Below, in pieces: positions 3,591 to 64,000 of a stretch of DNA of 64,000 bases; position 1 is the first letter of the stretch, and each line of letters starts with the position of its first letter. Below the pieces are notes generated by a model. That model worked only from the letters and a program-made list of their open reading frames with translations. It was not told the DNA's origin and did no database searches. Made by a program: the position numbers and the translations under genes. Origin of the DNA: Pseudarthrobacter sp. BIM B-2242 (lineage in GTDB: Bacteria > Actinomycetota > Actinomycetes > Actinomycetales > Micrococcaceae); the NCBI RefSeq assembly GCF_014764445.1, contig NZ_CP061721.1, forward strand, positions 3,348,001 to 3,412,000, read 5' to 3'.

Positions 3591-4180
3591 CTGTGTTCGA
3601 GCCCGTTGCGGACCATGGGCCACTCGTGCTCCAGGATGGAGAACACCACGTAGTCCCGCAGAACGCCGTCGGCCGTGCGTGAGTGGCTGCGCAGCACACC
3701 GTCCTGCTTGGCGCCGAGCCGGGCAATGGCCTCGCGGGACTGGTGGTTCATCCAGTGGGTGCGGAACTCCACCGCCACACAGCCCAGTGCTTTGAAGGCG
3801 TGCTGAAGCAGCAGCAGCTTGGAGTCCGGGTTGGTGCCGGTGCCGTGGGTTGAGGCGGCGTTCCAGGTGTAGCCGATCTCCACGCGGGGCGTGACGGCGT
3901 CGACATTGCAGTAAGTGGTCATCCCGATGATGCGGCCCGGGCCGCCAGTCGCGGGATCGATCAGCCGTGTGGTGAACGGCAGCATGGACCCCTGCGCCTG
4001 CATGGCCAGCCTGCGCTCAATCTCCGCGCCCATTCCGTCCGGGGTGGGAACGGACGTGTACCAGAGTTTCCACAGGTCGCCGTCCCGGGCCGCTGCCACC
4101 AGGCCGTCGTGGTGCCCGTACCGCAGCGGCTCAAGGATGACGTGGCGGCCGGTCAGGGTGAGGGGCTGAAGAAAAGTCAC
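3572..4180 (-). CDS. GNAT-family N-acetyltransferase (RimJ/RimL-like)
   Basis: This 202-residue protein has the RimJ-type GNAT layout: an N-terminal strand with VILEPLRYGHHDGL, a core with GMTTYCNVDAVTPRVEIGYTWN, and a C-terminal VEFRTHWMNHQSREAIARLGAKQDGVLR region like that of protein N-terminal or ribosomal-protein acetyltransferases. It should transfer acetyl from acetyl-CoA to an amine in the cytoplasm; the substrate is unknown. The usual acetyl-CoA loop R/Q-x-x-G-x-G/A is changed here to THGTGTNPDSKLLLLQHAF, which is normal for this subgroup. The start is GTG 4180 with AGCCTA (minus-strand TAGGCT) 6 nt upstream, so the mRNA is probably leaderless. The last codons lie inside the shared terminator palindrome. 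Confidence 0.85.
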   Translation of the reverse strand: MTFLQPLTLTGRHVILEPLRYGHHDGLVAAARDGDLWKLWYTSVPTPDGMGAEIERRLAMQAQGSMLPFTTRLIDPATGGPGRIIGMTTYCNVDAVTPRVEIGYTWNAASTHGTGTNPDSKLLLLQHAFKALGCVAVEFRTHWMNHQSREAIARLGAKQDGVLRSHSRTADGVLRDYVVFSILEHEWPMVRNGLEHRLAKHP

Positions 4181-5655: not shown

Positions 5656-5661
5656 AGCCTA
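5656..5661 (-). promoter_or_regulatory. -10 element (TAGGCT) of leaderless SRPBCC gene
   Basis: Minus-strand TAGGCT lies 6 nt upstream of ATG 5649, and there is no Shine-Dalgarno sequence between them. Confidence 0.55.
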
Positions 5662-5780
5662 GCCGGGGCTGCTGACATTCAATAGGCAACCTCAACCGGG
5701 CCCTTGAAATAGTAAGCATGCTTTGTGTTATGGTGAAAATGCAGTGTTTGATCAACAGGAAACGAAAGGCGGTCAGTGAC

Positions 5781-21931: not shown

Positions 21932-22528
21932 ATGCCACAGCACCCCGACGGAAACCCCCAACTGCCAGTTGCGCCCGCCGGGGCTGCTTCGCCCCCTCCT
22001 CCCCCGCCGCGGCCGGGCCTGTCCTACGCCGCACCGGCTCCCATCCTGGTGATTCCGCCGGCCCCGCGCAGCATACGGCTGGGCCGGGCCCTTTGGCTGT
22101 CCAGTTTCGTCGCCGGGCTTGCCGTCCTGGTGGGCTCTTTCCTCACCCGGGATTCCCATCTGGAGCGGCTCCGCGCCGTCGTGGACGAGATGGCGCCGGG
22201 CGGGGATGACGCCGCCCTCACCACGTCCACGGCCATCGTTTTTTGGGGCAGCGGCGGTGCCCTGCTTCTGTTGATCCTTCTCCAGGCGGCCCTGCTGGGG
22301 GCTGTCTCCGGCCGCCGCGGGTGGGCCCGCTGGCTCATGATCCTGCTCCTGGCCGGGCAGGTGGGCGTGATGGCCGTGACAGCAGTCTTCCTCGTTCCCG
22401 AGGGCGACGCCGGCAGTTACGTTCTTATCCTTTGGGCCGCCCAGGTGCTCCTGGCCTTCGCCGGCCTCCTGGCACTGCTGATGCCTTCGGCCCACCGCTG
22501 GTTTAAGTCACGGCGGAACCGGCCCTAG
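21932..22528 (+). CDS. Pro-rich four-helix membrane protein, unknown
   Basis: The 198-residue product has a Pro/Ala-rich cytoplasmic N-terminus (about 1-45, with a run of prolines) and four membrane helices (about 52-70, 100-125, 133-155, 160-185). I do not recognise the family. It follows the PLDc_N gene by 5 nt with a TAGGA site, so it is probably cotranscribed. It ends 23 nt before the end of the convergent dynamin-like gene and marks the border of the accessory block. Confidence 0.75.
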   Translation: MPQHPDGNPQLPVAPAGAASPPPPPPRPGLSYAAPAPILVIPPAPRSIRLGRALWLSSFVAGLAVLVGSFLTRDSHLERLRAVVDEMAPGGDDAALTTSTAIVFWGSGGALLLLILLQAALLGAVSGRRGWARWLMILLLAGQVGVMAVTAVFLVPEGDAGSYVLILWAAQVLLAFAGLLALLMPSAHRWFKSRRNRP

Positions 22529-22551: not shown

Positions 22552-24045
22552 TCAGGCAGGTTGCTTGTGCAGGTGCACCCCGGCGGCCTCAGCCAGGATG
22601 CCCTCACAGCTGCGCACCACTACCCGGCACACATCCAGTACGGATCGGTCCGTCAGCGGATTCTCGGCCAGCAGCCGCCACCGGTGAAGGACGCGGTGGG
22701 CCTCCGCGCTGATCTCGTCCCGCGACGCCTCCGGCTCCAGGCCCAGCCTCAGATGGGCTGCCACGCCCTCACCGCCAACGATCCGCTCGGCCTCCACGGC
22801 CAGTTCGTGCTTCAGCGTGACCCCGGTGGTCCGCAGCGTGGCCAGCAGGCCCAGTTCCCTGAACTCGTGGGCGTTGATCTGGAGCCGTTCCAGTGCTGTG
22901 GCCAGGTGCCCCGTTCCGTCCCGGGGTGAGTTGCGGAGCAGGGTTTCCACCCCCACCAGGGCGGTGCGGGCCTTGAGTGCGTCCGCGCGTGCATGGAACT
23001 GGCCCGCCAGCATGGCCAGCAGCGGGTCCAGGCCGCTGCGCCTGGCCAGCTCGTGGGCCAGTGGCGTGGGGTCCGTAAAGCCTGCCCGGATCAGGACTAC
23101 GGCCAGCCGGATTCCGAACAGTCCGAACCGCTCCAGCAGCTGCTTCCGTGCCTCGGCGGTGAGGCCGTCCGGAACGCCCGCCCGCAGAAACCTGTCCGCG
23201 GAGAGCAGCAGGCGCTCCCGTTCCGCCCGGTCCAAGGTGGAGAGAAGTGCCAGCGACTCGTAGTCGGACTGGCGCATGCTCCGGGCACTCTGGGCCAGCA
23301 GACCGGCCACCGGGACCACCCCCAATGCCAGCTTGCGCAGGCCGGGGTCCCGGCGGTACCGCTCTGCGATTTCTCCGGCCGAGAGCAGGGAATCGATCCG
23401 CCCGGCGCCGATTTCGTCGGCCCGGGACAAAACCGCCAGGGCGTTGACTGTTCCCGAACGGCCGGCCTCGGTGTCCTTGAAGGACTCCAGGAACCGCAGA
23501 TCGGCGGCATGCATATGCCGCATCAGGTACACAATGGCGTCCGCTTCGGAGGGCGAGTCGGCAGGAGTGAGGAAATTGACGGACCGGGCAGAAACGTCGC
23601 CGGACAGGGAAGCGATGCCAGGGGTGTCGATCAGGGTGACGTTCCGCAGGCTTTCCGACGGCCATTCCACCACCAGTCGTTCCACGTCCTCCGCCCGGTC
23701 CCTGCCGAGATCGAAGACGAGGCGCCCGTTGCTTCGTCGCAGGGGAAGCGGGCGGGGTTCGCCCGCAACGGGATGGAGCATGATGCGGGGCGAGTGGGCG
23801 AACCGGTACCAGGTGACGATGCGGGTGCATTCACCGGTGTCCGTGGGGGCGATCTCCTCCCCGATGATGGCGTTGAGAAGGGTTGATTTTCCGGCTTTCA
23901 CCATTCCGGCCACGGCGATCCGCAGAGGCTCCGACAACCTTGCGGCCCAGCCTTCCAGAGCCTCCACCGCAGCGGGGTCATCGCGGTAGGCGGCAAGCGC
24001 CTCCTGGATCAGGTCCGCTACTCCCGCGACCGTGGTCACCTTCAT
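22552..24045 (-). CDS. dynamin-like GTPase (IniC-type partner)
   Basis: This 497-residue protein has a dynamin-type G domain: P-loop GMVKAGKST at 47-55, switch-1 Thr region (APTDTGECT), G3 DTPG at 140-143 and a degenerate G4 (SRADE). A mostly helical stalk follows. I see no clear membrane helix, which fits IniC of mycobacteria rather than IniA. It should hydrolyse GTP and work with the larger dynamin encoded just upstream. Its ATG overlaps that gene's stop codon (ATGA), so the two are made together. Assignment to IniC is by domain type and gene order, not by sequence comparison. Confidence 0.85.
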   Translation of the reverse strand: MKVTTVAGVADLIQEALAAYRDDPAAVEALEGWAARLSEPLRIAVAGMVKAGKSTLLNAIIGEEIAPTDTGECTRIVTWYRFAHSPRIMLHPVAGEPRPLPLRRSNGRLVFDLGRDRAEDVERLVVEWPSESLRNVTLIDTPGIASLSGDVSARSVNFLTPADSPSEADAIVYLMRHMHAADLRFLESFKDTEAGRSGTVNALAVLSRADEIGAGRIDSLLSAGEIAERYRRDPGLRKLALGVVPVAGLLAQSARSMRQSDYESLALLSTLDRAERERLLLSADRFLRAGVPDGLTAEARKQLLERFGLFGIRLAVVLIRAGFTDPTPLAHELARRSGLDPLLAMLAGQFHARADALKARTALVGVETLLRNSPRDGTGHLATALERLQINAHEFRELGLLATLRTTGVTLKHELAVEAERIVGGEGVAAHLRLGLEPEASRDEISAEAHRVLHRWRLLAENPLTDRSVLDVCRVVVRSCEGILAEAAGVHLHKQPA

Positions 24046-26003
24046 CCGGCTGCCACCACCGCCGGAGCCCGCCGCGGTACGGAAACAGCCCCGTGTGCCG
24101 GCTTGGAAGGCGCCTGCTCCTTCTCCGCCAGGGCCCTGGCAGCCTGCTGCAAGGTGTCCACCCGCTTGAGCTCGGCCTTGATGTCCCGGATGCGCGTGTC
24201 CTTTTCAAGCTTGTACGTCGTGGCTGCCTTCTGCGCCGCCGACACCGAATCCGAGAGCGAGCGGTGATGCTCCTCGGCGATTTCCGTGAAGTGGTCACGG
24301 GTGGACCGCTGGACCATCCGCAGCCTGTCCTTGAGCTGCTTTCCCACCTGGAAGACCACATCGTCCAACTGGCGGCGGACCAGGGCCTTGGCCTCTGACT
24401 GCCGGCGTTTGAGCCTGGCGTCCTTGTCCTCCCGGTAGGCCTTGCGCCCCAGCAGCAGCCCCGCGCCGACGGACAGCGGATTGATCAAAGCCATGCCGAA
24501 GATCCCTGTCAGGAGGCCGAACATCAGGACACCGCCATAGGATCCCCGCATGCCGATAAGGACTTTTTGCATCGGGTTGATGTGCCCGTCGTCGAGGCCG
24601 GGCATATCGTCCACGGGGTCCAGGGCATCCCCGGTATCGGAGACGCGCAGCACCGGAAGTGTTACCTCGTCCTCGGAGAAGTGCTCGGCAACCTGCGTTG
24701 CCAGCCACTGGGAGCGCTCGCTCGTCCAGACGAAGGTGTCCGAAATCGCGGCAGCGGTGCACTCTTCAAGCCATTTGGTGAACGCCGTCCATGTAGGGCC
24801 GGGATCGCCCTGATCAATGGCGTTCTCCGCATCGCGCTGGATCCGCCGCAAGCGGTCCCGCAGGTCGTATTCCATGTCGGCTATCAAATCGCCGATACCG
24901 TCGTTAAGGGTGATCTGCCACCGTGCCGAGCGTTTGCGGAGGTCGTCGGCCTCCAGTTTCGCCGCTTCAAGGCCGGCGATCATGGCCGGCGTCCCTGCCG
25001 GGTTCTCCAGGGCCGCCAGTTCCGCCTGCAGGGACAGGCGGAGGTTATCGGTCACGGAGACCAGGTCCTGGCTTACGGAGCGCCGCTGGATCCGCTCGGC
25101 CTTCCCCACGATTTCGTTCCGCAGATGGCCGATGAGGCCGGGGAAGCCCGATTCATTGTTCAGTTCCGCATCCTGGTGCCGTGCGGCCTCGAGCCGAAGG
25201 TCCGAGGACACGGGGAACAGCGGGATGTCGGCCGACACCTGGGCGAGGTGTCCGCGGTCCAGTTCAGCCACGCGGCGCCAATCCGGGTAAAGGTCCGTCT
25301 TGGACAACACTCCGACAACGCTTGGTGTGATGCGCATTGCCTGCCGGAGGAACCTTATTTCCGGCTCGGTGTATTCCTGGGACGCATCCGATACCAGCAG
25401 CATCGCGTCTGCGGTCGGCAATGCCGTCAAGGTGGTCAGCGTGTGGCTGGAGCCCATGCCGCCGACACCGGGGGAATCAACAACCGTCAGGCCGCCGGCC
25501 AGGACTTTGCGGGGCAGGAACACTTCCGCGGCCACCAGCTTCTTCGCGTTGCCGGGATTCCCGCGTTCGGAAACATAGGCGGCCAGGTCAGCGATGTTGA
25601 TCGGCAGCCGTTCGAGTGGTTCGTCGTCACCGGGGTCCTTGTCTGCCCGGGGCAGGAGGACAGAAGCCGACGCCGGATCGCCGTGCCGGACAACCGTGGG
25701 CACCGAGGTGGCAATATCGTCGTCGACGGGGCAGACCGGCGCGTTGACCAAAGCGTTGATGAGTTTGCTTTTGCCTTGCTTGAACTCGCCCACCACTATC
25801 ACCCGGATGCTGGGATCCTTCAGCCGTGAAAGGGTCTGGTCCAGGCGCTTCCGCAAGTCGGCCCGCTCACCCTCGCTGACGATGTCGATTGCCTGCTCAA
25901 CGAGCCTGACCAGCTGCACTGAGGTCGCCGGCGCCGCTGGCTGGGGCGGGGCGGGAGATTCTGCCGCCGCTGCCGGAGCTCCTGATCGTTGCGTTTCAAC
26001 CAC
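24042..26003 (-). CDS. dynamin-like GTPase with membrane segment (IniA-type)
   Basis: This 653-residue protein has an N-terminal Ala/Pro-rich region, a G domain with GEFKQGKSK at 72-80, switch-1 Thr (ATSVPTVV), DSPG at 176-179 and SKTD as G4, then a helical stalk. A hydrophobic hairpin (YGGVLMFGLLTGIFGMALINPLSVGAGLLLG) near 475-505 is the likely membrane paddle, followed by a charged coiled coil. Bacterial dynamins of this class bind and fuse or reshape membranes; mycobacterial IniA is the closest named type. GTG 26003 is chosen because AAAGGA lies 6 nt upstream; a TTG at 26021 is the longer option. A strong hairpin separates it from the IniB-like gene. Confidence 0.87.
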   Translation of the reverse strand: MVETQRSGAPAAAAESPAPPQPAAPATSVQLVRLVEQAIDIVSEGERADLRKRLDQTLSRLKDPSIRVIVVGEFKQGKSKLINALVNAPVCPVDDDIATSVPTVVRHGDPASASVLLPRADKDPGDDEPLERLPINIADLAAYVSERGNPGNAKKLVAAEVFLPRKVLAGGLTVVDSPGVGGMGSSHTLTTLTALPTADAMLLVSDASQEYTEPEIRFLRQAMRITPSVVGVLSKTDLYPDWRRVAELDRGHLAQVSADIPLFPVSSDLRLEAARHQDAELNNESGFPGLIGHLRNEIVGKAERIQRRSVSQDLVSVTDNLRLSLQAELAALENPAGTPAMIAGLEAAKLEADDLRKRSARWQITLNDGIGDLIADMEYDLRDRLRRIQRDAENAIDQGDPGPTWTAFTKWLEECTAAAISDTFVWTSERSQWLATQVAEHFSEDEVTLPVLRVSDTGDALDPVDDMPGLDDGHINPMQKVLIGMRGSYGGVLMFGLLTGIFGMALINPLSVGAGLLLGRKAYREDKDARLKRRQSEAKALVRRQLDDVVFQVGKQLKDRLRMVQRSTRDHFTEIAEEHHRSLSDSVSAAQKAATTYKLEKDTRIRDIKAELKRVDTLQQAARALAEKEQAPSKPAHGAVSVPRRAPAVVAAG

Positions 26004-26056
26004 AGCCAGTCCTTTGGTCAATTCTCGAAAATGGGACGTTAGGGTGAGCCGGGAAA

Positions 26057-26088
26057 TGCCCGGCGGGAGGTTGGACTCCCGCCGGGCA
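26057..26088 (-). terminator. strong hairpin between the IniB-like and dynamin genes
   Basis: A perfect 13-bp stem, TGCCCGGCGGGAG with CTCCCGCCGGGCA, has a 6-nt loop. It lies in the 105 nt between the IniB-like stop codon and the first dynamin start, with no U-tract. It may stop part of the transcripts or stabilise the 3' end of the upstream mRNA. Confidence 0.65.
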
Positions 26089-26108
26089 CTTCCTGGCTAC
26101 CGCCTTAG

Positions 26109-27245
26109 TTAGTCGATTTCGTTGTCGTTCAGCGAATCAACCACCAGTACGTTGTCCTCGATGTCCACATCCGTGTTGATCGAGTTGTCGGAGTTGTCCT
26201 CGGTGAACTCGAGGGTGTTGTCCTCAACATTGACATCGGTGTAATCGATGTCGCCGACCGTCACAGACTCGTCAGTGGTGGTGGTGTTGTTGAAGTTCTC
26301 CAGGTCGTTCTCGGTGTTGGCGACATTCTCCAGGTTGTACTCGGTGTTTCCGACGTCCTCCACATCCACCTCGATGGACTCGTCGTTGTAGGAGCCGGTG
26401 GTCTCCTCGGAGTTGTCCACGCGGTTGTCCGAGTTGTCGTTCAGCGAGTCCTCGATATCAACGTCGATATCCGTCTCCGACGAGTTATCGGAGTTGTCGG
26501 AGTTGTCGGAGTTGTTGTTGTTGGAATCGTTGGTGGAGTTATCCGAGTTGTCGTTGAAGGATTCTTCAATGTCGACGTCAAGGTCGGTGTTGAAGGAATC
26601 CTCGATGTCCGTCTCTTCGTTTCCGATATTGACGTCGCCGCCTGCGCGGATGGAGTTATCCGTCGAATCGTCGTGCGAGTTGTCCGTGTTGTAGGAGTCC
26701 TCGATGTTGTTCGAATCCTCAATGTCGACGTCGTCGCCGGCAGCCACTGCACGGTCACCGGAGGCAACGACGGAGTCGTTGTCGAACCACTGCGTGACAT
26801 CGCCATCGGCCCAGATGTTCTGGTTGACGGACTGGTCCGTGATGGTGTCGCGGTCATCCACCGTTGAGGTGTAGGAGTAGTTGTTCACTACATGGTGCAG
26901 CTGCTGGACGGCGTGTGCGTGGTCATCGTGGTCGTGGTCACCATGATCATGATCGTGGTCATGGTCGCGGCCGCCTCCGGCCGGAGGCGGGGTGTGGCCG
27001 CCGCCACTGACCTCGGAATCGTTCCCGCCGGTGTTGTATTCCCGGTCGAAGGACGAAGCATTAACGGTGATGGGAGCGAAGTCCAGGATGACGGGCATTG
27101 CGGCATCAACATCTGCTGAGCAGACCTTGTCGAGTCCGTGTTCCTCAAGGACCTTCTCCGGATCATCCAGGAATTCCTTCGCTGCCTCCTCATTACCGAA
27201 AAGGCTCATCAGGAACAGTACGAGGTCGTTTGCGAGTGTAGGCAT
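26109..27245 (-). CDS. IniB-type N-terminal domain protein with very acidic Asp/Asn/Ser repeats
   Basis: The 378-residue protein begins with an IniB-like helical domain (about 1-62: LVLFLMSLFGNEEAAKEFLDDP, then ADVDAAMPVILDFAP). Residues 94-111 are a His/Asp run (RDHDHDHDHGDHDHDDHAH) that could bind metal. The rest (about 115-378) is low complexity, rich in Asp, Asn, Glu and Ser, with only a few basic residues and repeats close to DVDIEDS (about 173, 212, 223, 261, 360). This suggests a beta-solenoid or disordered polyanion. There is no signal peptide or Cys beyond residue 42. GAGGACC lies 6 nt before ATG 27245. In mycobacteria iniB precedes iniA and iniC in the same order as here. Confidence 0.85.
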   Translation of the reverse strand: MPTLANDLVLFLMSLFGNEEAAKEFLDDPEKVLEEHGLDKVCSADVDAAMPVILDFAPITVNASSFDREYNTGGNDSEVSGGGHTPPPAGGGRDHDHDHDHGDHDHDDHAHAVQQLHHVVNNYSYTSTVDDRDTITDQSVNQNIWADGDVTQWFDNDSVVASGDRAVAAGDDVDIEDSNNIEDSYNTDNSHDDSTDNSIRAGGDVNIGNEETDIEDSFNTDLDVDIEESFNDNSDNSTNDSNNNNSDNSDNSDNSSETDIDVDIEDSLNDNSDNRVDNSEETTGSYNDESIEVDVEDVGNTEYNLENVANTENDLENFNNTTTTDESVTVGDIDYTDVNVEDNTLEFTEDNSDNSINTDVDIEDNVLVVDSLNDNEID

Positions 27246-27317
27246 TGGATGGTCCTCAAATCTTCTCTGAGTTATGGGTAGCCCGGCTTCCTTGCGGGGC
27301 CTGAATCAAACGTAAGG

Positions 27318-27357
27318 TCCTACCCCGGGACCGGGCATCGGGTCGTTTCCCCCTACC
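27318..27357 (-). promoter_or_regulatory. paired CCTACC boxes upstream of the IniB-like gene
   Basis: TCCTACC at 27318-27324 and CCCTACC at 27351-27357 are direct repeats 33 bp apart, about three helical turns, within the 110 nt before the IniB-like gene. They could be sites for the LuxR-type regulator encoded next door. This is a guess from position and spacing. Confidence 0.3.
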
Positions 27358-27390
27358 GGGCCGGCCCCTACGGGGGATGGGCCGGCCCGG
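27356..27390 (-). terminator. terminator hairpin after the LuxR-type gene
   Basis: A perfect 12-bp stem, CCGGGCCGGCCC with GGGCCGGCCCGG and an 11-nt loop, follows the LuxR stop codon by about 20 nt. Confidence 0.65.
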
Positions 27391-27410
27391 GCGGTTAGGG
27401 GTACTAGGGA

Positions 27411-29456
27411 TCATTCGCGCGGGGGTTCTTCCGGCCCAAGGGCCAGCCTCAGCCGCACCAGCAGGTCAGAGCGGTTTTCAGCCCCCAGCCGGCGGCGCAT
27501 CCGGGCAATGTGGTGCTCGGCGGTACGCGGCGAGATATAGATTGCTTCCCCGATTTCCCGGTAGGTTTTTCCTTCCAGCACCAGCCTTGCCACTTCTTTT
27601 TCGCGTTCACTCAGCACGGACGCATCCGATGGCCGGGTGCCATTGCCCTGGTCAGCGTCGGGAACATTGTGGACTTCGGCCTGGACGGACGGTTTCGGCC
27701 CGCCTGAGCTCGACTGCGGGTGGAGGTCCCGGGCGCAGGAGAGCAGGCGGAGCATGTCTTTCCGCTCGTCTGCGCGGGCCGCGGCGTGCCCTGCCAGCCG
27801 GGCACCTTCCCAGGGCATCCCGACCGTGTTCAAGCCCCGGGCTGCCGCCTCGACGTCTGCCGGCTGGAATTTTCCGGCGAGGACCGAGACCCACGCTTTG
27901 CCGGCAGCCGCCAGCAGGGAGGCAAGGTGGCTGTGGTCCGCAGCGCGGGCAAGGGCTGCTGCATGGGGGCCCAGTGCGGCCGGACTTTCGTTCAACAGCG
28001 CCGCCTGCACGGCGGCCCAGTGGAATGGCACTGCCCAGAGCGGCGGCTCCCCCAGGTCCCGCAGAAGCTTCCACGCCTCATCGAAGTAGTGCGACACCCG
28101 CCGGGTTTCCCGCAGGCGGGCGGCGGTGATCATCAGTTCCCCCCACGGAAGGAGGCTGTACAGGTCCAGCGTGGTGTGCAGCATGGCTTCGCGGGCCCGT
28201 TCCCACGCCAGGACCAGGCCATGAACTTCGCCGCTCCGGCGCGCCAGGCCTACCTCCAAGGCAGCGCAGAGGAATTCGTCTCGCGGGACCAGCGGCCAGT
28301 GGTTGGCTTTGGAGGCTTCGTTGATGGCCAGCCTCGCTTCATCCGGATTGTCCTGTTGCATGGCGGACCATGCCTGGAGCAGGAACAGCCGTGGCTTGGC
28401 CGCATCGCCCCCCTGGCCCGCCGCCGCCGCGGCGCGCACAATCGTCTCTGCGAGATGGGGTTCGCCGCTGTGCAGTGCAACCAGCGCGGCCAAAGCCCCG
28501 GGCGTATCCGGAGCAGGCAGGGCTGCGCCCGAAGCGTTCAACATGTCTGAGGCGTGGATGAGAATCGGAAGCCCCTGATGCGGATCCCCAGCCAACGATT
28601 CCATGATGCCGTTGGCCATTTGGGCCTGCGCCACGGCCAGCGACGTGGGCGACGCGGGCGCAGATCCCTTCGGGAACATTGCCTCGGCACCTTCGCGGTC
28701 GCCGCTGCCGATCATCGCAACGGCGGCCGCCGGCCGGGACGGTCCCACCCTCTCCGGGCCAAGCCACGTGTACACATCGGCGCCGCGGGCCAGCATACCC
28801 CGCTGTGCCCACACTGCAGCAGAGACGTCCGCCCCCAGCCGGAGGTCCGGCGGATCAGGACACATCAGCAATCCGTCGATGATCCGGCTGGCAGAATCCA
28901 GGTCCCCGATGGCAAACGCTGCCTGGGCGCGGCGGGCCGCGGTGGCCAATTCATCCGCGCCGGCTAGGAGGGCCTCGTCGTAGAGCTGGGCGGCCAGTCC
29001 GGGATTGTGTTCCAGGGCCCGGTCCCCGGCCTTTTCAAGGTCGGCTGCGACGCGGGGGTCGGCCAATCCAGTGCGTGCCAGTTGGCGCGCGAGTTCGCCG
29101 AGGGGACGCCCGTCCGCAGCGAAGCAGCCCACAAGTTCGCGCTGCAGTGCGTGAACCCGCGGCGTCGGGGTGGACGACAGGAGAGCGTGCTGGACGGTTC
29201 CCATCACTGTGCCGTCAGGATTCAGAAGCCCGGATGATTCCGCCCGGGCGACCAGGGAGTTAAGGCTCTCCCCTTCCCCGTCTGCCATCCGGCGGGACAA
29301 TTCCCCGGGCAGCGGTCCGGGAAGTGTGAACCCGACGGACAAAGCCAGCAGAAGCTCCCGTAGCACGGCGTCCTCGCCACGGAGCTGTGCAGCAGTGTGC
29401 TGGGGGTTGGCGGGCAATGACGATTCCGTTGCCGGCGTGGCCTGATGTCTCATCAT
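27411..29456 (-). CDS. LuxR-type transcription regulator with TPR-like region
   Basis: This 681-residue protein ends in a GerE/LuxR helix-turn-helix (about 616-675: SEREKEVARLVLEGKTYREIG, ISPRTAEHHIARMRRRLGAENRSDLL). The rest is Ala/Leu-rich helical repeats like the TPR part of LAL regulators, but there is no P-loop, so it is not an ATPase-type LAL. It should bind DNA and sense a partner protein or ligand through the repeats. The start lies 3 nt after the Hsp70-like stop codon, with AGGG 6 nt upstream, so it is coupled to that gene. It most likely controls the downstream IniB/dynamin genes. Confidence 0.88.
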   Translation of the reverse strand: MMRHQATPATESSLPANPQHTAAQLRGEDAVLRELLLALSVGFTLPGPLPGELSRRMADGEGESLNSLVARAESSGLLNPDGTVMGTVQHALLSSTPTPRVHALQRELVGCFAADGRPLGELARQLARTGLADPRVAADLEKAGDRALEHNPGLAAQLYDEALLAGADELATAARRAQAAFAIGDLDSASRIIDGLLMCPDPPDLRLGADVSAAVWAQRGMLARGADVYTWLGPERVGPSRPAAAVAMIGSGDREGAEAMFPKGSAPASPTSLAVAQAQMANGIMESLAGDPHQGLPILIHASDMLNASGAALPAPDTPGALAALVALHSGEPHLAETIVRAAAAAGQGGDAAKPRLFLLQAWSAMQQDNPDEARLAINEASKANHWPLVPRDEFLCAALEVGLARRSGEVHGLVLAWERAREAMLHTTLDLYSLLPWGELMITAARLRETRRVSHYFDEAWKLLRDLGEPPLWAVPFHWAAVQAALLNESPAALGPHAAALARAADHSHLASLLAAAGKAWVSVLAGKFQPADVEAAARGLNTVGMPWEGARLAGHAAARADERKDMLRLLSCARDLHPQSSSGGPKPSVQAEVHNVPDADQGNGTRPSDASVLSEREKEVARLVLEGKTYREIGEAIYISPRTAEHHIARMRRRLGAENRSDLLVRLRLALGPEEPPRE

Positions 29457-29459
29457 GGA

Positions 29460-31502
29460 TCACCCTGCCGGAACGATGGTCGGATCGGGTGTCGGCTCTG
29501 CGGTCTGCGCAACGGTCTGCGTAGCCGTTGGTTCCGGTTCGGGCGCGGGCGGCGCAGACGGGGTCGGCGCAGGCTCGGCACTTGGCTCCGGCGTCACAGG
29601 CGTATCCGTGGGCGGCGGCGGATCAGTTGACGGCGGCGGGGTGGGCGTCGTCGGTGGCTCCGTTGGCGGCGGGGTGGCAGTCGTCGGCGGCGTCGTCGGT
29701 TCCTGCGTCGCCGGAGGAGGATCCGTTGGCGCAGGCGTGACCGGGGCCGTCGTCGAAGGCGGAGGGATCGTGGTGTCGGGTGTTGTCCCGGCGGGAGTTC
29801 CCGGTACGGCCGCCGCCGGCGTTGGTTCAGTCTTTGTCCCCTGCCCGTCGGGGGTGGACGCCGGGGCCGCGGCGTCCGGCGTGGTGCCGGCAGGCGATGA
29901 CGCTGCGGGGGACGGCTTGCTGCTGGGTGACGCCGCCGCTTCGAGTCCTGCTGAACTGCCAATTGTGTCCGCAGGCTTCTTCGCGCTGGCCTCAATGCCA
30001 CTCGCGGGATCCTGTACCGCGTCCGCAGAACCTCCGGGCGCCGCCGCCACGCCGTTGCCGCCGCCTGGAGAGGCGTCGGCCGGCGCGGCTGGCGGTGCGA
30101 ACATCGCGGTGAGGTTTCCCAGCCCCTCCGGGCTTTGCGCGGCAGTGGCGGTCAGGATGGTGAACAGGGCAGCCCCTGCCGCCACCGCTGTCAGCCGGAT
30201 GGCGGGACGCGGAGCATGTGCCCCCGCCTTCGCACCATGCCGGCGGCCCGCGGCAACTCCCCTGGCACCGTCGCCTGCGGCGGCCGTGCCGGCCAAAGAG
30301 CCAAACCCGGGTTTCCGGGACCAGCTGGCGCGGCGGTCAGCGTTGTGCGGCTCATCCGCCAGGTCTGCTGGAGCCGGGATCGCAGGAACCGTGCCGGCAA
30401 CAGCGTCAGCGGGGCCGGCTGCGGACGCCGCAGCGGCCCGGAGCGCGGCGACGGCCGCGCCGAGGCAAATGGAAGACTTGGGGTCTGCATCTACGGCGAT
30501 AGGCCGGTCCAGCTGTTCGGAGATCAGCTGCGCCACCAACGGAATCCGTGAAGAACCGCCAATCAGGAGCACCGCGGACAGGTCAGCAGGCTCCAGCCCG
30601 AGCTGCTCCAGCGAACGTTCCAGCGCATCCACGGTTTCGCGGATGGGCTCCTCGATCATGGCCTCGAACTCTGAGCGGACCAGCCGGACCTGCTGCTGCA
30701 TGCCGGGCAGGAAGACGGAGATGTTCGCCTCGCTGTCGGCCGAGAGTGCCTCCTTGGCCTCCACACATTCACGCTTCAGCCTGGCCAGTGCGGCCAGGGC
30801 GCCGGGGTCCTCCGGGTCAAGGGCTGCCAGCGCCTCCCCGGTATGCGAGGCAACGTACCGGAGCACGGCAGCGTCAAAGTCGGCGCCGCCCAGCCCCTCA
30901 ATGCCGTCCGGGCTGCCCAGGAAGTCGAAGCGGCCGTTGCCGGCCTTCTTCAGGATGGCTGTGTCGAACGTCCCGCCGCCCAGATCGTAGACGGCAATAG
31001 TGCTGCCGTCCTCCACGCGAACCTGGGAGGCGTAGTGCAGTGCCGCCGCTTCCGGTTCGCTGATGAGCGTAACGTTGTTCAGTCCTTTGGCAGCGAGGGC
31101 TGCCAGGACCGCGGTGGTCCGGTGTCCGCCCCAGGCTGCGGGGTGCGTGATGATGATTTCCGACGGCGGGGCGCCCTCGCGTTCTTCGGCCCGGTCGGCG
31201 ACCCAGCGGGCCATCGTGGCAAAGATGTCCTCTGCGGGCAGGGCTAATGTACCGACTGCGATGGGGACGCTGTCACCGATGCGGCGTTTGAACTCGCGCA
31301 CAACCCTGGCGGGAACATCCAGGCCGCGGCGTTCGGCTGCCTCCCCCACCAGGACGGGGCCCTCTTCAGGGTAGTAGACCACTGAGGGGACTGCTGTTCC
31401 GCGGAGGCCCAAGGGCAGGCTCTCAGGAACAGGCTGGTCGTTTTTGGCAATCGCGGCGGCGGTGAAACTGGTCCCGACATCAACGGCGAGGACATAGCTC
31501 AT
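29460..31502 (-). CDS. membrane-anchored Hsp70-fold protein with Pro/Thr-rich outer tail
   Basis: The 680-residue product has an N-terminal actin/Hsp70 ATPase domain (about 1-350): phosphate-1 AVDVGTSFTAAAI, phosphate-2 VYDLGGGTFDTAIL, adenosine LLIGGSSRIPLV and the C-terminal SSICLGAAVAALRAA helix. Instead of an Hsp70 substrate-binding domain there is a basic linker, one membrane helix (LTAVAAGAALFTILTAT) and about 230 residues rich in Pro, Thr, Ala and Ser reaching outside the cell. It is more like a transmembrane sensor than a chaperone. ATG 31502 has CGAGGTACC 5 nt upstream; an ATG at 31547 is less likely. It is the first gene of the accessory operon, with the LuxR-type gene next. Confidence 0.87.
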   Translation of the reverse strand: MSYVLAVDVGTSFTAAAIAKNDQPVPESLPLGLRGTAVPSVVYYPEEGPVLVGEAAERRGLDVPARVVREFKRRIGDSVPIAVGTLALPAEDIFATMARWVADRAEEREGAPPSEIIITHPAAWGGHRTTAVLAALAAKGLNNVTLISEPEAAALHYASQVRVEDGSTIAVYDLGGGTFDTAILKKAGNGRFDFLGSPDGIEGLGGADFDAAVLRYVASHTGEALAALDPEDPGALAALARLKRECVEAKEALSADSEANISVFLPGMQQQVRLVRSEFEAMIEEPIRETVDALERSLEQLGLEPADLSAVLLIGGSSRIPLVAQLISEQLDRPIAVDADPKSSICLGAAVAALRAAAASAAGPADAVAGTVPAIPAPADLADEPHNADRRASWSRKPGFGSLAGTAAAGDGARGVAAGRRHGAKAGAHAPRPAIRLTAVAAGAALFTILTATAAQSPEGLGNLTAMFAPPAAPADASPGGGNGVAAAPGGSADAVQDPASGIEASAKKPADTIGSSAGLEAAASPSSKPSPAASSPAGTTPDAAAPASTPDGQGTKTEPTPAAAVPGTPAGTTPDTTIPPPSTTAPVTPAPTDPPPATQEPTTPPTTATPPPTEPPTTPTPPPSTDPPPPTDTPVTPEPSAEPAPTPSAPPAPEPEPTATQTVAQTAEPTPDPTIVPAG

Positions 31503-31612
31503 GGGTACCTCGGAAAAACGCAGCTGGCCGTCTGCAAGCTTCATCACAGACGAGCTTCCACCAAGGTAGCATCACCGTCTGCCGGGCGACACCCTTATTC
31601 GTACATCGATTA

Positions 31613-31623
31613 GCGTATTACGC
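31613..31623. promoter_or_regulatory. palindrome upstream of the Hsp70-like gene
   Basis: GCGTATTACGC is a perfect 5+1+5 palindrome about 110 nt before ATG 31502, in the AT-richer spacer after ccsB. It could be an operator; no matching regulator site is known to me. Confidence 0.3.
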
Positions 31624-31657
31624 CGGAGGCTGGCGACCGATCCGACGAAACCGCTGA

Positions 31658-61947: not shown

Positions 61948-63654
61948 GTTTCTGCCGTGGCTGCGCCTGCGAGTCTGGCGGCGGCGATCGGCGTCGTCCG
62001 CGCCGCTGCCGCCGCCGCCCCGGCCCACCTGGCCATGGCCTCCTATCTGGAGGCCGCCGATTACGCCGGCCTCACCGAAGAACTCTCCCGGACCGTGGAG
62101 TACCTCCAGATCCTCTCCGCCGGGGCCGTGGACCGCACCCGCACCCAAGCCATCGCCGACGCCGCTGCCACCCGGGCGGTCAGGTCCTGGACCACCGGCT
62201 GGGACAGCACCGGCATCGAAACCGTCACCGAAACCGACGCAGCCTGGCCCGCCGGCGCAGGCACTCCTGCTCCTGCGTCCGGGTCACCGGCGGACGACGG
62301 CTGCAAAAACACCGCCGAATTCCTCCGTCTACGGCTGCGGATCGGTGGCAGCGAAGCCAAACGCCGCCTCCACCTCGCCCACGCCATCCTCCCCGAAACC
62401 ACCCTCACCGGCGACACCCTCCCACCGGCCCGCGAACACCTCGCCGCAGCCCTCACCCCCACCAGCGACACGACAGACCCCGGCACCGAAACCCTGAACC
62501 CCCTTGAGCTCCCGGCAGCAGCCGGGCCCGTGATGTCCTCCCAGGCCGGGACAATCATCAGCGCCACCCTGGACCGCCTCACACACCACACCACCGCCGA
62601 AACCCTGGACCGGATCGAACACGACCTGACCCGCGCCGCCGCGACCACCGACCCCGACTTCCTCGCCCGCCTCGCCCGCCGCTGGGCCGACACCCTCGAC
62701 GCCGACGGCACCGAACCCACCGAAGAAGCCCTCCGCCACACCCAAGGCGCGTTCATCCGCAAACCCCGCCACGGCCTGCACCACCTCGAAATCTTCGCCA
62801 CCACCGACCAATACGAACACTTCGCCACCATCATGAACGCCGCCACCAACCCCCGCACCCACCCCACCACCAGCCCAGACACGGACAGCAACACCGGCAG
62901 CGCCGGCACGGACAACAGCGACGGGACCGGGCAGGGCGCGCGGCAGAACACCGGCGTGTGGCAGGACAATAACGTGGACCTGGACCGGCGCACCCGGCCC
63001 CAAAAACAACTCGACGGCATCATCACCGCCTTCAAAGCAGCCCTCACCACCAACAAACTCCCCACCGCCGGCGGGAACCGCCCCCAAATCATCGCCACCA
63101 TCAACTACCAGGACCTCCTCCCCCACCTCCCAGCCCCGGAAACCGGCACCGACACCGGTCCGGCCAGCGCCGACACGGACACAGTCGCAAATACAGGTGC
63201 AGGTACAGGCACAGGCACAGGCAGTTTCATCTTCACCGGACCCGCCGCGGCCGCCACCATCCGCAAACTCGCCTGCCACGCCGACATCATCCCCACCCTC
63301 CTGGGCACCCACGGCGAAATCCTGGACCTCGGCCGCAAAACCCGCCTCTTCACCCCCGCCCAACGCCTCGCCCTCACCGCCCGCGACCAAGGCTGTACCT
63401 TCCCCAACTGCACCATCCCCGCACCCTGGTGCGAAGCCCACCACATCACCTACTGGTCACACAACGGCCCCACCAGCACCACCAACGGCGTCCTCCTCTG
63501 CTCACACCACCACCACCTCATCCACAAAGAACAATGGACCATCCACACCACCAACGACACCCCCTGGTTCACACCCCCACGCCACATCGACCCCACCCAA
63601 AAACCCCAACAAAACCACTACTTCAAACCACCCCCACCACCCCAACGCGAATAA
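61909..63654 (+). CDS. DUF222 / HNH endonuclease-domain protein (13E12 type)
   Basis: The 581-residue protein has an Ala-rich helical DUF222 region (about 60-340) and a C-terminal HNH nuclease (CTFPNCTIPAPWCEAHHI, then NGVLLCSHHHHLIHKEQW). A low-complexity stretch rich in Thr, Asp, Asn and Gly (about 315-345 and 410-440) interrupts it. Such genes are present in many copies in Arthrobacter and mycobacteria (REP13E12), and their role is unknown. Codon use near the 3' end is extreme for C in third position. A duplicated 5' end precedes it. Confidence 0.9.
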   Translation: MEALTEQLAGNGSVSAVAAPASLAAAIGVVRAAAAAAPAHLAMASYLEAADYAGLTEELSRTVEYLQILSAGAVDRTRTQAIADAAATRAVRSWTTGWDSTGIETVTETDAAWPAGAGTPAPASGSPADDGCKNTAEFLRLRLRIGGSEAKRRLHLAHAILPETTLTGDTLPPAREHLAAALTPTSDTTDPGTETLNPLELPAAAGPVMSSQAGTIISATLDRLTHHTTAETLDRIEHDLTRAAATTDPDFLARLARRWADTLDADGTEPTEEALRHTQGAFIRKPRHGLHHLEIFATTDQYEHFATIMNAATNPRTHPTTSPDTDSNTGSAGTDNSDGTGQGARQNTGVWQDNNVDLDRRTRPQKQLDGIITAFKAALTTNKLPTAGGNRPQIIATINYQDLLPHLPAPETGTDTGPASADTDTVANTGAGTGTGTGSFIFTGPAAAATIRKLACHADIIPTLLGTHGEILDLGRKTRLFTPAQRLALTARDQGCTFPNCTIPAPWCEAHHITYWSHNGPTSTTNGVLLCSHHHHLIHKEQWTIHTTNDTPWFTPPRHIDPTQKPQQNHYFKPPPPPQRE

Positions 63655-63751
63655 GCAGCCGTCCACGCTTACGTGGCATGCCGCCGGAACACACGACAAT
63701 CACTCCAGTCGGTGGGAATCCGGTATCACCAGGAATTCCGGGAGCAGAACA

Positions 63752-64000
63752 CTACTCGGCCGCTGCGGCCAGGACCGGGCCCGCCCGCTCCCCCATGGCA
63801 CCGCCGGACGTAAAGCCCAGGACCTCAATCAGGACATCCTTTTCGCGATGTACCTCTGTCACGTTGACGGAGCGGGCCGATCCTTCAACGACGCCTGCCG
63901 GGTAGCCGTCAATGGTCACTCCCCACCGGTACACCGCCGGATCAGCAGACTCCCAGCTGACTTTGACCTCGCTGATCCGCCCCACCGTAGAGAGAACTTC
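63752..64000 (-). CDS. C-terminal part of a protein with an Fn3-like domain, 5' end outside the window
   Basis: The frame is open to the window edge on the minus strand (83 codons seen). The sequence (GRISEVKVSWESADPAVYRWGVTIDGYPAG, then VNVTEVHREKDVLIEVLGFTSGG) fits the last strands of a fibronectin type III-like domain. The in-frame GTG at 63985 is not the real start, since the frame continues before it. The gene is convergent with the DUF222 gene. Nothing can be said of the rest. Confidence 0.6.
   Translation of the reverse strand, partial: EVLSTVGRISEVKVSWESADPAVYRWGVTIDGYPAGVVEGSARSVNVTEVHREKDVLIEVLGFTSGGAMGERAGPVLAAAAE

What the first reader, a model, noticed from the sequence alone, without database searches (positions are those of the whole stretch)
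22552..31502. Hsp70-like / LuxR / IniB-like / dynamin-dynamin block: candidate membrane-stress system
Five minus-strand genes in one direction: a transmembrane Hsp70-fold protein without a substrate-binding domain, a LuxR-type TPR regulator coupled to it (3 nt), an IniB-type acidic repeat protein and two dynamin-like GTPases with ATGA overlap. The last three follow the iniB-iniA-iniC order of mycobacteria, where the operon answers cell-wall inhibitors. The first two are not part of that operon. Together they look like sensor, switch and effectors: the Hsp70 tail samples the wall, the regulator turns on the IniB/dynamin genes and the GTPases repair or reshape the membrane. The circuit is inference.
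Basis: partly seen in the sequence, partly recalled or inferred. Interest (0 to 1): 0.85.

Follow-up and report, generated by a model that had tools for sequence, protein, structure and literature searches.

The report
Envelope-stress operon with Hsp70-like partner
An Arthrobacter-like bacterium carries a slimmed-down version of the mycobacterial iniBAC envelope-stress system, whose switch protein has lost its own ATP-burning part and sits beside a membrane-anchored Hsp70-like protein, with a probable DNA docking site for the switch in front of the effector genes.

Summary
The five genes are real and inherited as a unit. The 'LuxR' gene is a homologue of IniR, the known mycobacterial iniBAC activator (E 1.4e-111), lacking IniR's N-terminal AAA ATPase domain. 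A membrane-anchored Hsp70-like gene lies directly upstream of iniR in 95 of 104 loci with room. All 38 IniR genomes in a class sample of 394 also have IniA. I found a probable IniR operator at the iniB promoter: CCCCTAA boxes plus a dyad. A composite pattern occurs only at iniB, in 12 of 15 IniR+ relatives and 0 of 24 others. Paired boxes occur in 18 of 18 IniR+ and 0 of 7 IniR- genomes of one mycobacterial-type genus group. A missed sixth gene (4-TM, 21932-22528 +) faces iniC. hsp70-iniR and iniBAC seem to have separate promoters. That the Hsp70-like protein controls IniR is inference; a role on the IniB/dynamin side is the main rival, since some lineages keep it without IniR. A general 'ATPase handed over' rule was tested and not supported. 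New variant of a known kind.

The parts
29460..31502 (-). Hsp70-like protein, 680 aa: nucleotide-binding domain (about 1-360) with the six catalytic residues checked in place, TM about 434-452, 228-residue Pro/Ala/Thr-rich tail, no substrate-binding domain
   Evidence: PF00012 E 8.8e-49; TM by hydropathy, tail; DnaK alignment; model: NBD pLDDT above 90, most of the tail under 50; six residues intact
27411..29456 (-). IniR homologue without the AAA ATPase domain, 681 aa: all-helical solenoid (18-578) plus LuxR/GerE HTH (613-673)
   Evidence: NF038181 E 1.4e-111, profile 221-825 of 827, 374 bits versus cut-off 750; no P-loop; model mean pLDDT 88.9; best PDB matches are helical-repeat proteins such as APC/C subunits, TTC7B and Tom70, TM-score at most about 0.4
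27395..27401 (-). probable IniR half-box CCCCTAA in the iniB promoter; degenerate box TCCCTA at 27405-27410; CCCCCGTAGGGG at 27365-27376
   Evidence: genome-wide tests
27335..27355 (-). dyad TAGGGG-N7-CCCGATGC, core of the probable IniR operator
27305..27314 (-). TACGTTTGAT, conserved probable -10 region of the iniB promoter (inference)
26109..27245 (-). IniB-type protein, 378 aa: IniB N-terminal domain, His/Asp stretch, then Asp/Asn-rich acidic repeats (residues 61-378: 28.3% D+E, 1.9% K+R)
   Evidence: NF038175 55.4 bits, cut-off 40; composition
24042..26021 (-). IniA, dynamin-like GTPase; alternative start GTG at 26003
   Evidence: (M. smegmatis IniA 6j72, E 1e-139; GRKAY stretch of the lipid-interacting loop aligned)
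22552..24045 (-). IniC, dynamin-like GTPase, 497 aa
21932..22528 (+). sixth gene of the cassette: 198 aa, Pro-rich N-terminus, 4 predicted TM, convergent with iniC; no Pfam or NCBIfam family
31503..31657 (-). upstream region of hsp70-iniR: stretches conserved in close relatives, no CCCCTAA box

Best explanation
This is the Micrococcaceae form of the IniR-iniBAC envelope-stress module. The hsp70-iniR unit is made from its own promoter. On envelope stress IniR, here a bare helical solenoid plus LuxR HTH, binds the CCCCTAA/dyad operator and turns on one target operon, iniB-iniA-iniC. IniA and IniC then remodel or cut the membrane; IniB and the 4-TM protein help in an unknown way. The Hsp70-like protein is a membrane-anchored, nucleotide-driven partner that most likely holds or releases IniR at the membrane, as MalK does MalT, and so supplies the ATP-dependent switching that IniR's own ATPase domain, lost here, may give elsewhere. 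Shown by sequence: homologies, gene order, co-inheritance, a shared promoter motif, absence of the ATPase domain, intact Hsp70 catalytic residues. Inferred: binding and activation by IniR here, the stress signal, the Hsp70-IniR contact, and the functions of IniB and the 4-TM protein. The confidence given is for the module and its IniR-iniBAC logic; for the Hsp70-controls-IniR step alone I give about 0.5.
For: IniR homology. IniR is the iniBAC activator, with a ChIP peak upstream of the operon in M. tuberculosis (PMC5760070, abstract, section read). Co-inheritance: IniR, IniA and over-cut-off IniB in the same 15 of 25 genus genomes, own included; 38 of 38 IniR genomes in a class sample of 394 have IniA; this Hsp70 in 4 of 4 IniR+ and 0 of 10 IniR- genomes tested. 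hsp70 directly upstream of iniR in 95 of 104 loci with room. Operator: one place per genome, at iniB, in 12 of 15 IniR+ relatives and none in 24 others; reversed-pattern control one hit in 39 genomes. In genus group f19/g29, paired boxes in 18 of 18 IniR+ and 0 of 7 IniR- genomes, 40 sites against 6 for the reversed pattern in the 18; the 5 sites outside the ini locus in that group all precede an IniB-domain gene. IniA resembles 6j72, and IniA cuts membranes with GTP in vitro (PMC6715688, passages).
Against: No expression or binding data for any Micrococcaceae. The Hsp70-IniR link is only genomic. hsp70 occurs with iniA and iniC without IniR in f29 and f10, so its partner may be the effectors. 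Locus L080 has no Hsp70 in the 18 kb read. The 'ATPase handed over' idea fails as a rule: the independent-pairs test shows nothing, and L087, L089 and L090 lack the P-loop and have a degenerate Hsp70. Distance correlations are high among all four families, with no specific Hsp70-IniR signal. The composite operator is missing in 3 of 15 IniR+ relatives (G007, G017, G021). The paired-box pattern is absent from the window's own genome and its sites in two other IniR+ genomes (G313, G281) lie outside the ini locus with no IniB-type gene found nearby. In other Micrococcales only 5 of 34 loci have CCCCTAA and 15 of 34 a diverged dyad before iniB.
Confidence: 0.72

Rival explanations
1. The Hsp70-like protein belongs to the effector side: a membrane-anchored Hsp70 ATPase that assembles, disassembles or positions IniB and the IniA/IniC dynamins, and does not regulate IniR. 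It sits next to iniR only because the whole module is kept together.
For: Hsp70 genes with the same NBD-TM-tail plan are linked to IniA/IniC without IniR in f29 (L173, L174) and f10 (L069); the ORF between them looks IniB-like by eye but two of the three were tested and match no NCBIfam model. In f28 the Hsp70 lies on the iniA side, away from iniR, in 4 of 4 loci. In the mycobacterial-type loci L075 and L076 a second hsp70 carries its own CCCCTAA boxes, like an effector. Partial distance correlation given IniA is 0.57 for Hsp70-IniC and 0.40 for Hsp70-IniR.
Against: Immediate upstream position at iniR in 95 of 104 loci. In Arthrobacter the hsp70-iniR unit lacks the motif that marks the effector operon.
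Confidence: 0.35
2. The Hsp70-like protein is mainly a wall sensor whose Pro/Thr-rich tail feels wall state.
For: A TM by hydropathy in 34 of 38 orthologues examined, mostly followed by a long low-complexity, probably extracytoplasmic tail; beta-propeller-type tail in L181 by Pfam; structured-looking, Cys-bearing tails in L069, L173 and L174 by eye only.
Against: In the window the tail is predicted largely disordered; tail sequence is poorly conserved; L071 has no TM and no tail.
Confidence: 0.2
3. Two unrelated gene sets that happen to be neighbours.
For: Apparently separate promoters.
Against: Co-inheritance, synteny over several families, the empty site and the motif that follows IniR.
Confidence: 0.02
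4. An anti-phage or conflict system (GTPases plus an Hsp70).
For: GTPase-HSP70 conflict systems have been described, some with an HSP70 lacking the peptide-binding domain (PMC7159879, passages); patchy presence in the genus.
Against: No conflict-type effector recognised among the five genes by Pfam or NCBIfam; the paper's text as held has no 'dynamin' and no 'IniR'; homology is to the iniBAC envelope-stress system. The PADLOC library was not searched.
Confidence: 0.05

Closest known systems
IniR-iniBAC of mycobacteria (Rv0339c, Rv0341-Rv0343)
   Same: IniR homologue, IniB N-terminal domain, IniA and IniC in the same order; the same CCCCTAA boxes before iniB-type genes in mycobacterial-type genomes
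   Different: IniR here lacks the AAA domain and scores 374 bits against a cut-off of 750; hsp70-iniR-iniB-iniA-iniC all on one strand; IniB tail is Asp/Asn-rich; extra 4-TM gene; host lineage without mycolic acids (recalled)
M. smegmatis iniR locus with a dnaK-like gene (one sentence in PMC5760070)
   Same: an Hsp70-type gene next to iniR
   Different: the sections I read draw no conclusion from it; here the Hsp70 keeps its catalytic residues, whereas in the seven f19/g29 loci with an Hsp70 that I read (of eight read, of 18 found) they are degenerate
MalT-MalK (E. coli)
   Same: LuxR-HTH plus helical-repeat activator; a membrane-held off state is the model proposed here
   Different: MalT has its own NTPase domain and MalK is an ABC ATPase, not an Hsp70; resemblance recalled and from PMC5760070, not tested
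HSP70/GTPase conflict systems (PMC7159879)
   Same: Hsp70 without its peptide-binding domain beside GTPases
   Different: no dynamin and no IniR in the text as held; other partners (passages)

Membership tests
IniR (NCBIfam NF038181 equivalog) | score above the curated cut-off of 750 bits | tested here: not met
   374.3 bits, profile 221-825
IniR | N-terminal AAA ATPase domain with P-loop | tested here: not met
   no P-loop; 103 nt between the hsp70 stop and the start of shared IniR homology, against 600-775 nt in most loci that keep the domain
IniR | helical repeat domain plus C-terminal LuxR HTH | tested here: met
IniR | binds upstream of iniB and activates iniBAC | not testable with these tools
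   only the probable operator was found
IniB | IniB N-terminal domain above the curated cut-off | tested here: met
   NF038175 55.4 bits, cut-off 40
IniA | full-length similarity to solved IniA, with lipid-interacting loop | tested here: met
   6j72 over residues 37-622, E 1e-139, GRKAY stretch aligned
IniC | second dynamin-like GTPase directly after iniA | tested here: met
   Dynamin_N E 2.3e-13, ATGA overlap
Hsp70/DnaK chaperone | ATPase domain with catalytic residues | tested here: met
   the six residues checked match the DnaK reference L182:2277-4124
Hsp70/DnaK chaperone | substrate-binding domain | tested here: not met
   PF00012 matches only up to profile position 372 of 599; the rest is TM plus a largely disordered tail
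HSP70/GTPase conflict systems | conflict-type effector gene in the neighbourhood | tested here: inconclusive
   none seen among the five genes; PADLOC not searched

The most novel reading that the evidence does not exclude
A membrane-anchored Hsp70 ATPase without a substrate-binding domain is the conserved nucleotide switch of the IniR-iniBAC envelope-stress pathway; in Micrococcaceae it has taken over the role of IniR's own lost AAA domain, giving a new kind of transmembrane signalling (Hsp70 anchor plus solenoid-LuxR activator) that controls a dynamin pair.
Probability: 0.3. Interest if true: 0.82.

Novelty: new variant of a known kind. Interest (0 to 1): 0.62.

Why it matters
How IniR senses envelope stress is open: trehalose (PMC5760070) and an ATP surge read by its AAA domain (PMC6104191, passages, put forward there as speculation) have both been proposed. 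A natural IniR without that domain, in lineages that to my knowledge (recalled) make no mycolic acids, with a probable operator and one predicted target operon, lets the question be tested outside mycobacteria. The operator also predicts IniR targets, including iniB-type genes far from the locus.

Tried and rejected
ATPase complementarity (Hsp70 intact exactly where IniR lacks its ATPase): raw counts in 97 loci looked suggestive (no P-loop/intact 49, P-loop/intact 26, P-loop/degenerate 19, no P-loop/degenerate 3), but on an IniA tree the P-loop changes 4 times and Hsp70 decay 6 times, and the independent-pairs test (3-4 pairs) shows nothing and is too small to reach significance. Rejected as a general rule. 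In that tree L129 was scored as keeping the domain (its P-loop reads GVGGSGKR), L091 was left unscored for the P-loop, and L083, L102, L104, L115, L125, L136, L154 and L165 were left out beforehand.

Natural Hsp70-IniR fusion: L133 has one 1359-codon ORF over both genes, but an apparent out-of-frame stretch and a ribosome site plus ATG for iniR inside it point to a frameshift. Not counted as a fusion, not mended.

Specific Hsp70-IniR coevolution: rank correlations 0.85-0.93 among the four families in 93 loci (L090, L092, L102, L104, L115, L125, L136, L154 and L165 excluded as duplicate, truncated, frameshifted or over-long ORFs); no specific pair.

Literature: the listings of searches show no paper on the Hsp70-IniR pairing; the one mention found is the sentence in PMC5760070. 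Searches and the reading failed by time-out, so whether the CCCCTAA operator is in print was NOT settled. I can say only that a term search of PMC5760070 and passages of PMC13413693 do not describe it; the latter reports a different motif, for HpoR, in the iniBAC promoter. Papers seen: PMC5760070 abstract and sections 10, 11 and 17; PMC6715688, PMC13413693, PMC11832169, PMC6104191 and PMC7159879 passages only.

Duplicates: L102 is the contig of G009 (L058) and L125 that of G008 (L065), judged by contig name length. They were left out. L102 is counted (L125 lacked room there) and both are counted. Other same-species pairs between named and unnamed loci may remain.
Full report
Observation. The five minus-strand genes are as described. 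The Hsp70-like protein has a nucleotide-binding half, one TM by hydropathy beyond it and a long Pro/Ala/Thr-rich tail; it has no substrate-binding domain. Its six checked catalytic residues match a DnaK reference from G143.

What the regulator is. NCBIfam places the 'LuxR' protein in the IniR family (E 1.4e-111) but only over profile 221-825 of 827, at 374 bits against a cut-off of 750. IniR is the published activator of iniBAC: a knockout does not respond to ethambutol or isoniazid, overexpression turns iniBAC on, and a ChIP peak lies upstream of the operon (PMC5760070; abstract, sections 10, 11 and 17 read). The part missing here is the AAA ATPase domain. The predicted structure is a helical solenoid with an HTH; its PDB matches are helical-repeat proteins at TM-scores of about 0.4 or less. 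So the regulator is an IniR homologue but not an IniR equivalog.

Where it occurs. Among 39 relatives, own genome included, IniR, IniA and over-cut-off IniB-domain genes occur in the same 15, all in the window's genus group of 25. One further genome, G033, has IniA (43% identity) and a sub-threshold IniB-type match on another contig; G016 has a second sub-threshold IniB-type match. The matching Hsp70 is in 4 of 4 IniR+ and 0 of 10 IniR- genomes tested, the latter having only 29-32% matches; the Hsp70 was not surveyed class-wide. In a class sample of 394 genomes, 38 have IniR at E 1e-40 or better and all 38 are among the 49 with IniA; the other 11 have weaker IniA matches (569 bits or less). 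The IniA model was built mostly from IniR-linked loci, which favours this result. A scan with the IniA alignment gave 80 named loci, the best 80 of 558 relatives, itself a capped list: Arthrobacter, Pseudarthrobacter, Paenarthrobacter, Agromyces, Agreia, Naasia, Georgenia, Microbacterium, Zafaria and others. On the IniA tree the window groups with L054 (G013), L053 (G015) and Pseudarthrobacter sulfonivorans L093.

Gene order. Of 104 IniR loci with at least 2.5 kb upstream, 95 have hsp70 upstream on the same strand, its stop within 1.4 kb of the start of shared IniR homology (the room that IniR's own N-terminal domain takes where it is kept). By group: 53 of 54 Micrococcaceae-like, 32 of 33 other Micrococcales, 8 of 11 f19, 0 of 4 f28, 2 of 2 others. 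Seven have hsp70 elsewhere in the fetched stretch (the 4 of f28, L079, L081, and L165 whose iniR is broken up); 2 have none by this test. One of those two, L133, does have the gene, merged into one ORF by an apparent frameshift; the other is L080. The sample is anchored on IniR or IniA hits, so it says nothing about iniR-free hsp70 genes elsewhere. Two layouts recur: all genes in one direction (Micrococcaceae, Agromyces, Georgenia) and iniA-iniC facing iniB-iniR-hsp70 (Microbacterium); the mycobacterial-type loci differ again. In f29 and f10 the Hsp70 gene sits with IniA and IniC and no IniR; the ORF between them looks IniB-like by eye, but the two tested match no NCBIfam model.

Empty site. 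In 9 of 10 IniR- relatives (the tenth contig ends) the flanking ccsB and PLDc-type genes lie near each other: alignment ends 136-180 nt apart in three and about 1.4-3.6 kb in six, without a match to IniC, Hsp70 or the gene at 21932 in the stretch. The content of the longer gaps was not studied.

Sixth gene. A 198-residue protein with a Pro-rich start and 4 predicted TM is encoded at 21932-22528 (+), convergent with iniC. It is found beside iniC in 93 loci and not found in 14; 9 more were too short to tell. The 14 misses are five of one subclade (L057, L100, L101, L109, L141), L115 and L133 in the Micrococcaceae-like group, L069 (same order), and six from other orders of the class (L079, L081, L084, L085, L086, L091). 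A weak match next to iniC exists in one f19 genome (L184). No Pfam or NCBIfam family for the window's protein (limits E 1 and 0.1).

Operator. Alignment of iniB upstream regions shows CCCCTAA half-boxes, a dyad (in the window TAGGGG-N7-CCCGATGC) and a probable -10. In 51 Micrococcaceae-like loci, 46 have at least one CCCCTAA within 260 nt of iniB; sites are 374 times denser there than elsewhere in the loci (partly circular, since the motif came from these; loci without it: L061, L062, L108, L110, L117). More independent tests: the composite pattern in 39 whole genomes occurs in 12, at one place each and always at iniB: 12 of 15 IniR+ (not G007, G017, G021) and 0 of 24 others, with one hit for the reversed control, in G016. 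Paired CCCCTAA in 394 genomes occurs in 22 of 38 IniR+ and 22 of 356 others; the window's own genome has no exact pair. Within genus group f19/g29, whose IniR hits pass the equivalog cut-off, it occurs in 18 of 18 IniR+ and 0 of 7 IniR- genomes; reversed-pattern hits are 6 and 4. Of 40 sites in those 18 genomes, 35 lie in the ini locus and 5 elsewhere; all 5 precede a gene with the IniB N-terminal domain over cut-off, though these five come from only two kinds of genome. Against this, the sites of two other IniR+ genomes, G313 and G281, lie outside the ini locus and no IniB-type gene was found beside them (L193, L194). Other Micrococcales have diverged: 5 of 34 loci with CCCCTAA and 15 of 34 with a CGGG-CCCCGAT-type dyad before iniB. 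I saw no CCCCTAA box upstream of hsp70-iniR in the window or in the 22 aligned Micrococcaceae loci; in mycobacterial-type loci the boxes lie between the divergent hsp70-iniR and an IniB-type gene, before iniB, and before a second hsp70 in L075 and L076.

Mechanism. IniA cuts membranes with GTP in vitro (PMC6715688, passages), and iniAC are linked to vesicle release in M. tuberculosis (PMC11832169, passages, citing Gupta 2023, not read). I infer: stress frees or activates IniR, IniR turns on iniBAC, and the dynamins restore the membrane. The Hsp70-like protein is either IniR's membrane anchor and nucleotide switch (my favoured reading, about 0.5) or an effector-side ATPase for IniB and the dynamins (about 0.35). 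Absence of the IniR ATPase in 51 of 54 Micrococcaceae-like loci with room or an adjacent hsp70 (kept in L110, L119, L151), with the Hsp70 active site kept, fits the first; IniR-free loci with the Hsp70 fit the second; the tree test decides neither.

Known versus new. The iniBAC genes, IniR and one dnaK-like neighbour in M. smegmatis were known. New as far as my completed searches go: the wide Hsp70-IniR-iniBAC linkage, the ATPase-less IniR, the operator and its reach to distant iniB-type genes, and the 4-TM gene. Later paper searches failed, so priority on the operator is not established.

Noticed in passing
L075:10590-12347; L076:10794-12236: A second, divergent Hsp70-like gene downstream of iniR in two mycobacterial-type loci carries its own pair of CCCCTAA boxes, so it may be a further IniR target.
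   Followed up: partly
L181:2934-5393: An Hsp70-like protein beside iniC whose outer part matches beta-propeller families (Vgb_lyase, YNCE-like), unlike the disordered tails elsewhere.
   Followed up: no
L069:10795-13047; L173:5446-7581; L174:6533-8716: In loci without IniR the Hsp70 tail holds a structured-looking, Cys-bearing part (by eye) of no Pfam family, a possible sensor domain.
   Followed up: no
L119:6938-9893: Two tandem iniB genes, each with its own CCCCTAA pair.
   Followed up: partly
L177, L178, L179, L180: IniA-IniC pairs in f33 genomes with a divergent smaller gene that scores only 23-25 bits against the IniR profile, perhaps another LuxR-type activator.
   Followed up: no
L193 about 5659-5674; L194 about 3632-3655: Paired CCCCTAA sites of two IniR+ genomes outside the ini locus with no IniB-type gene beside them; chance or unknown targets.
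   Followed up: partly
window 26109-27245: IniB carries a His/Asp-rich stretch after its N-terminal domain that could bind metal, followed by short tandem repeats.
   Followed up: no
window 62001-64000: Strong strand asymmetry (GC skew -0.335, AT skew 0.343) that I did not explain; no Rfam match in the window at gathering threshold.
   Followed up: no
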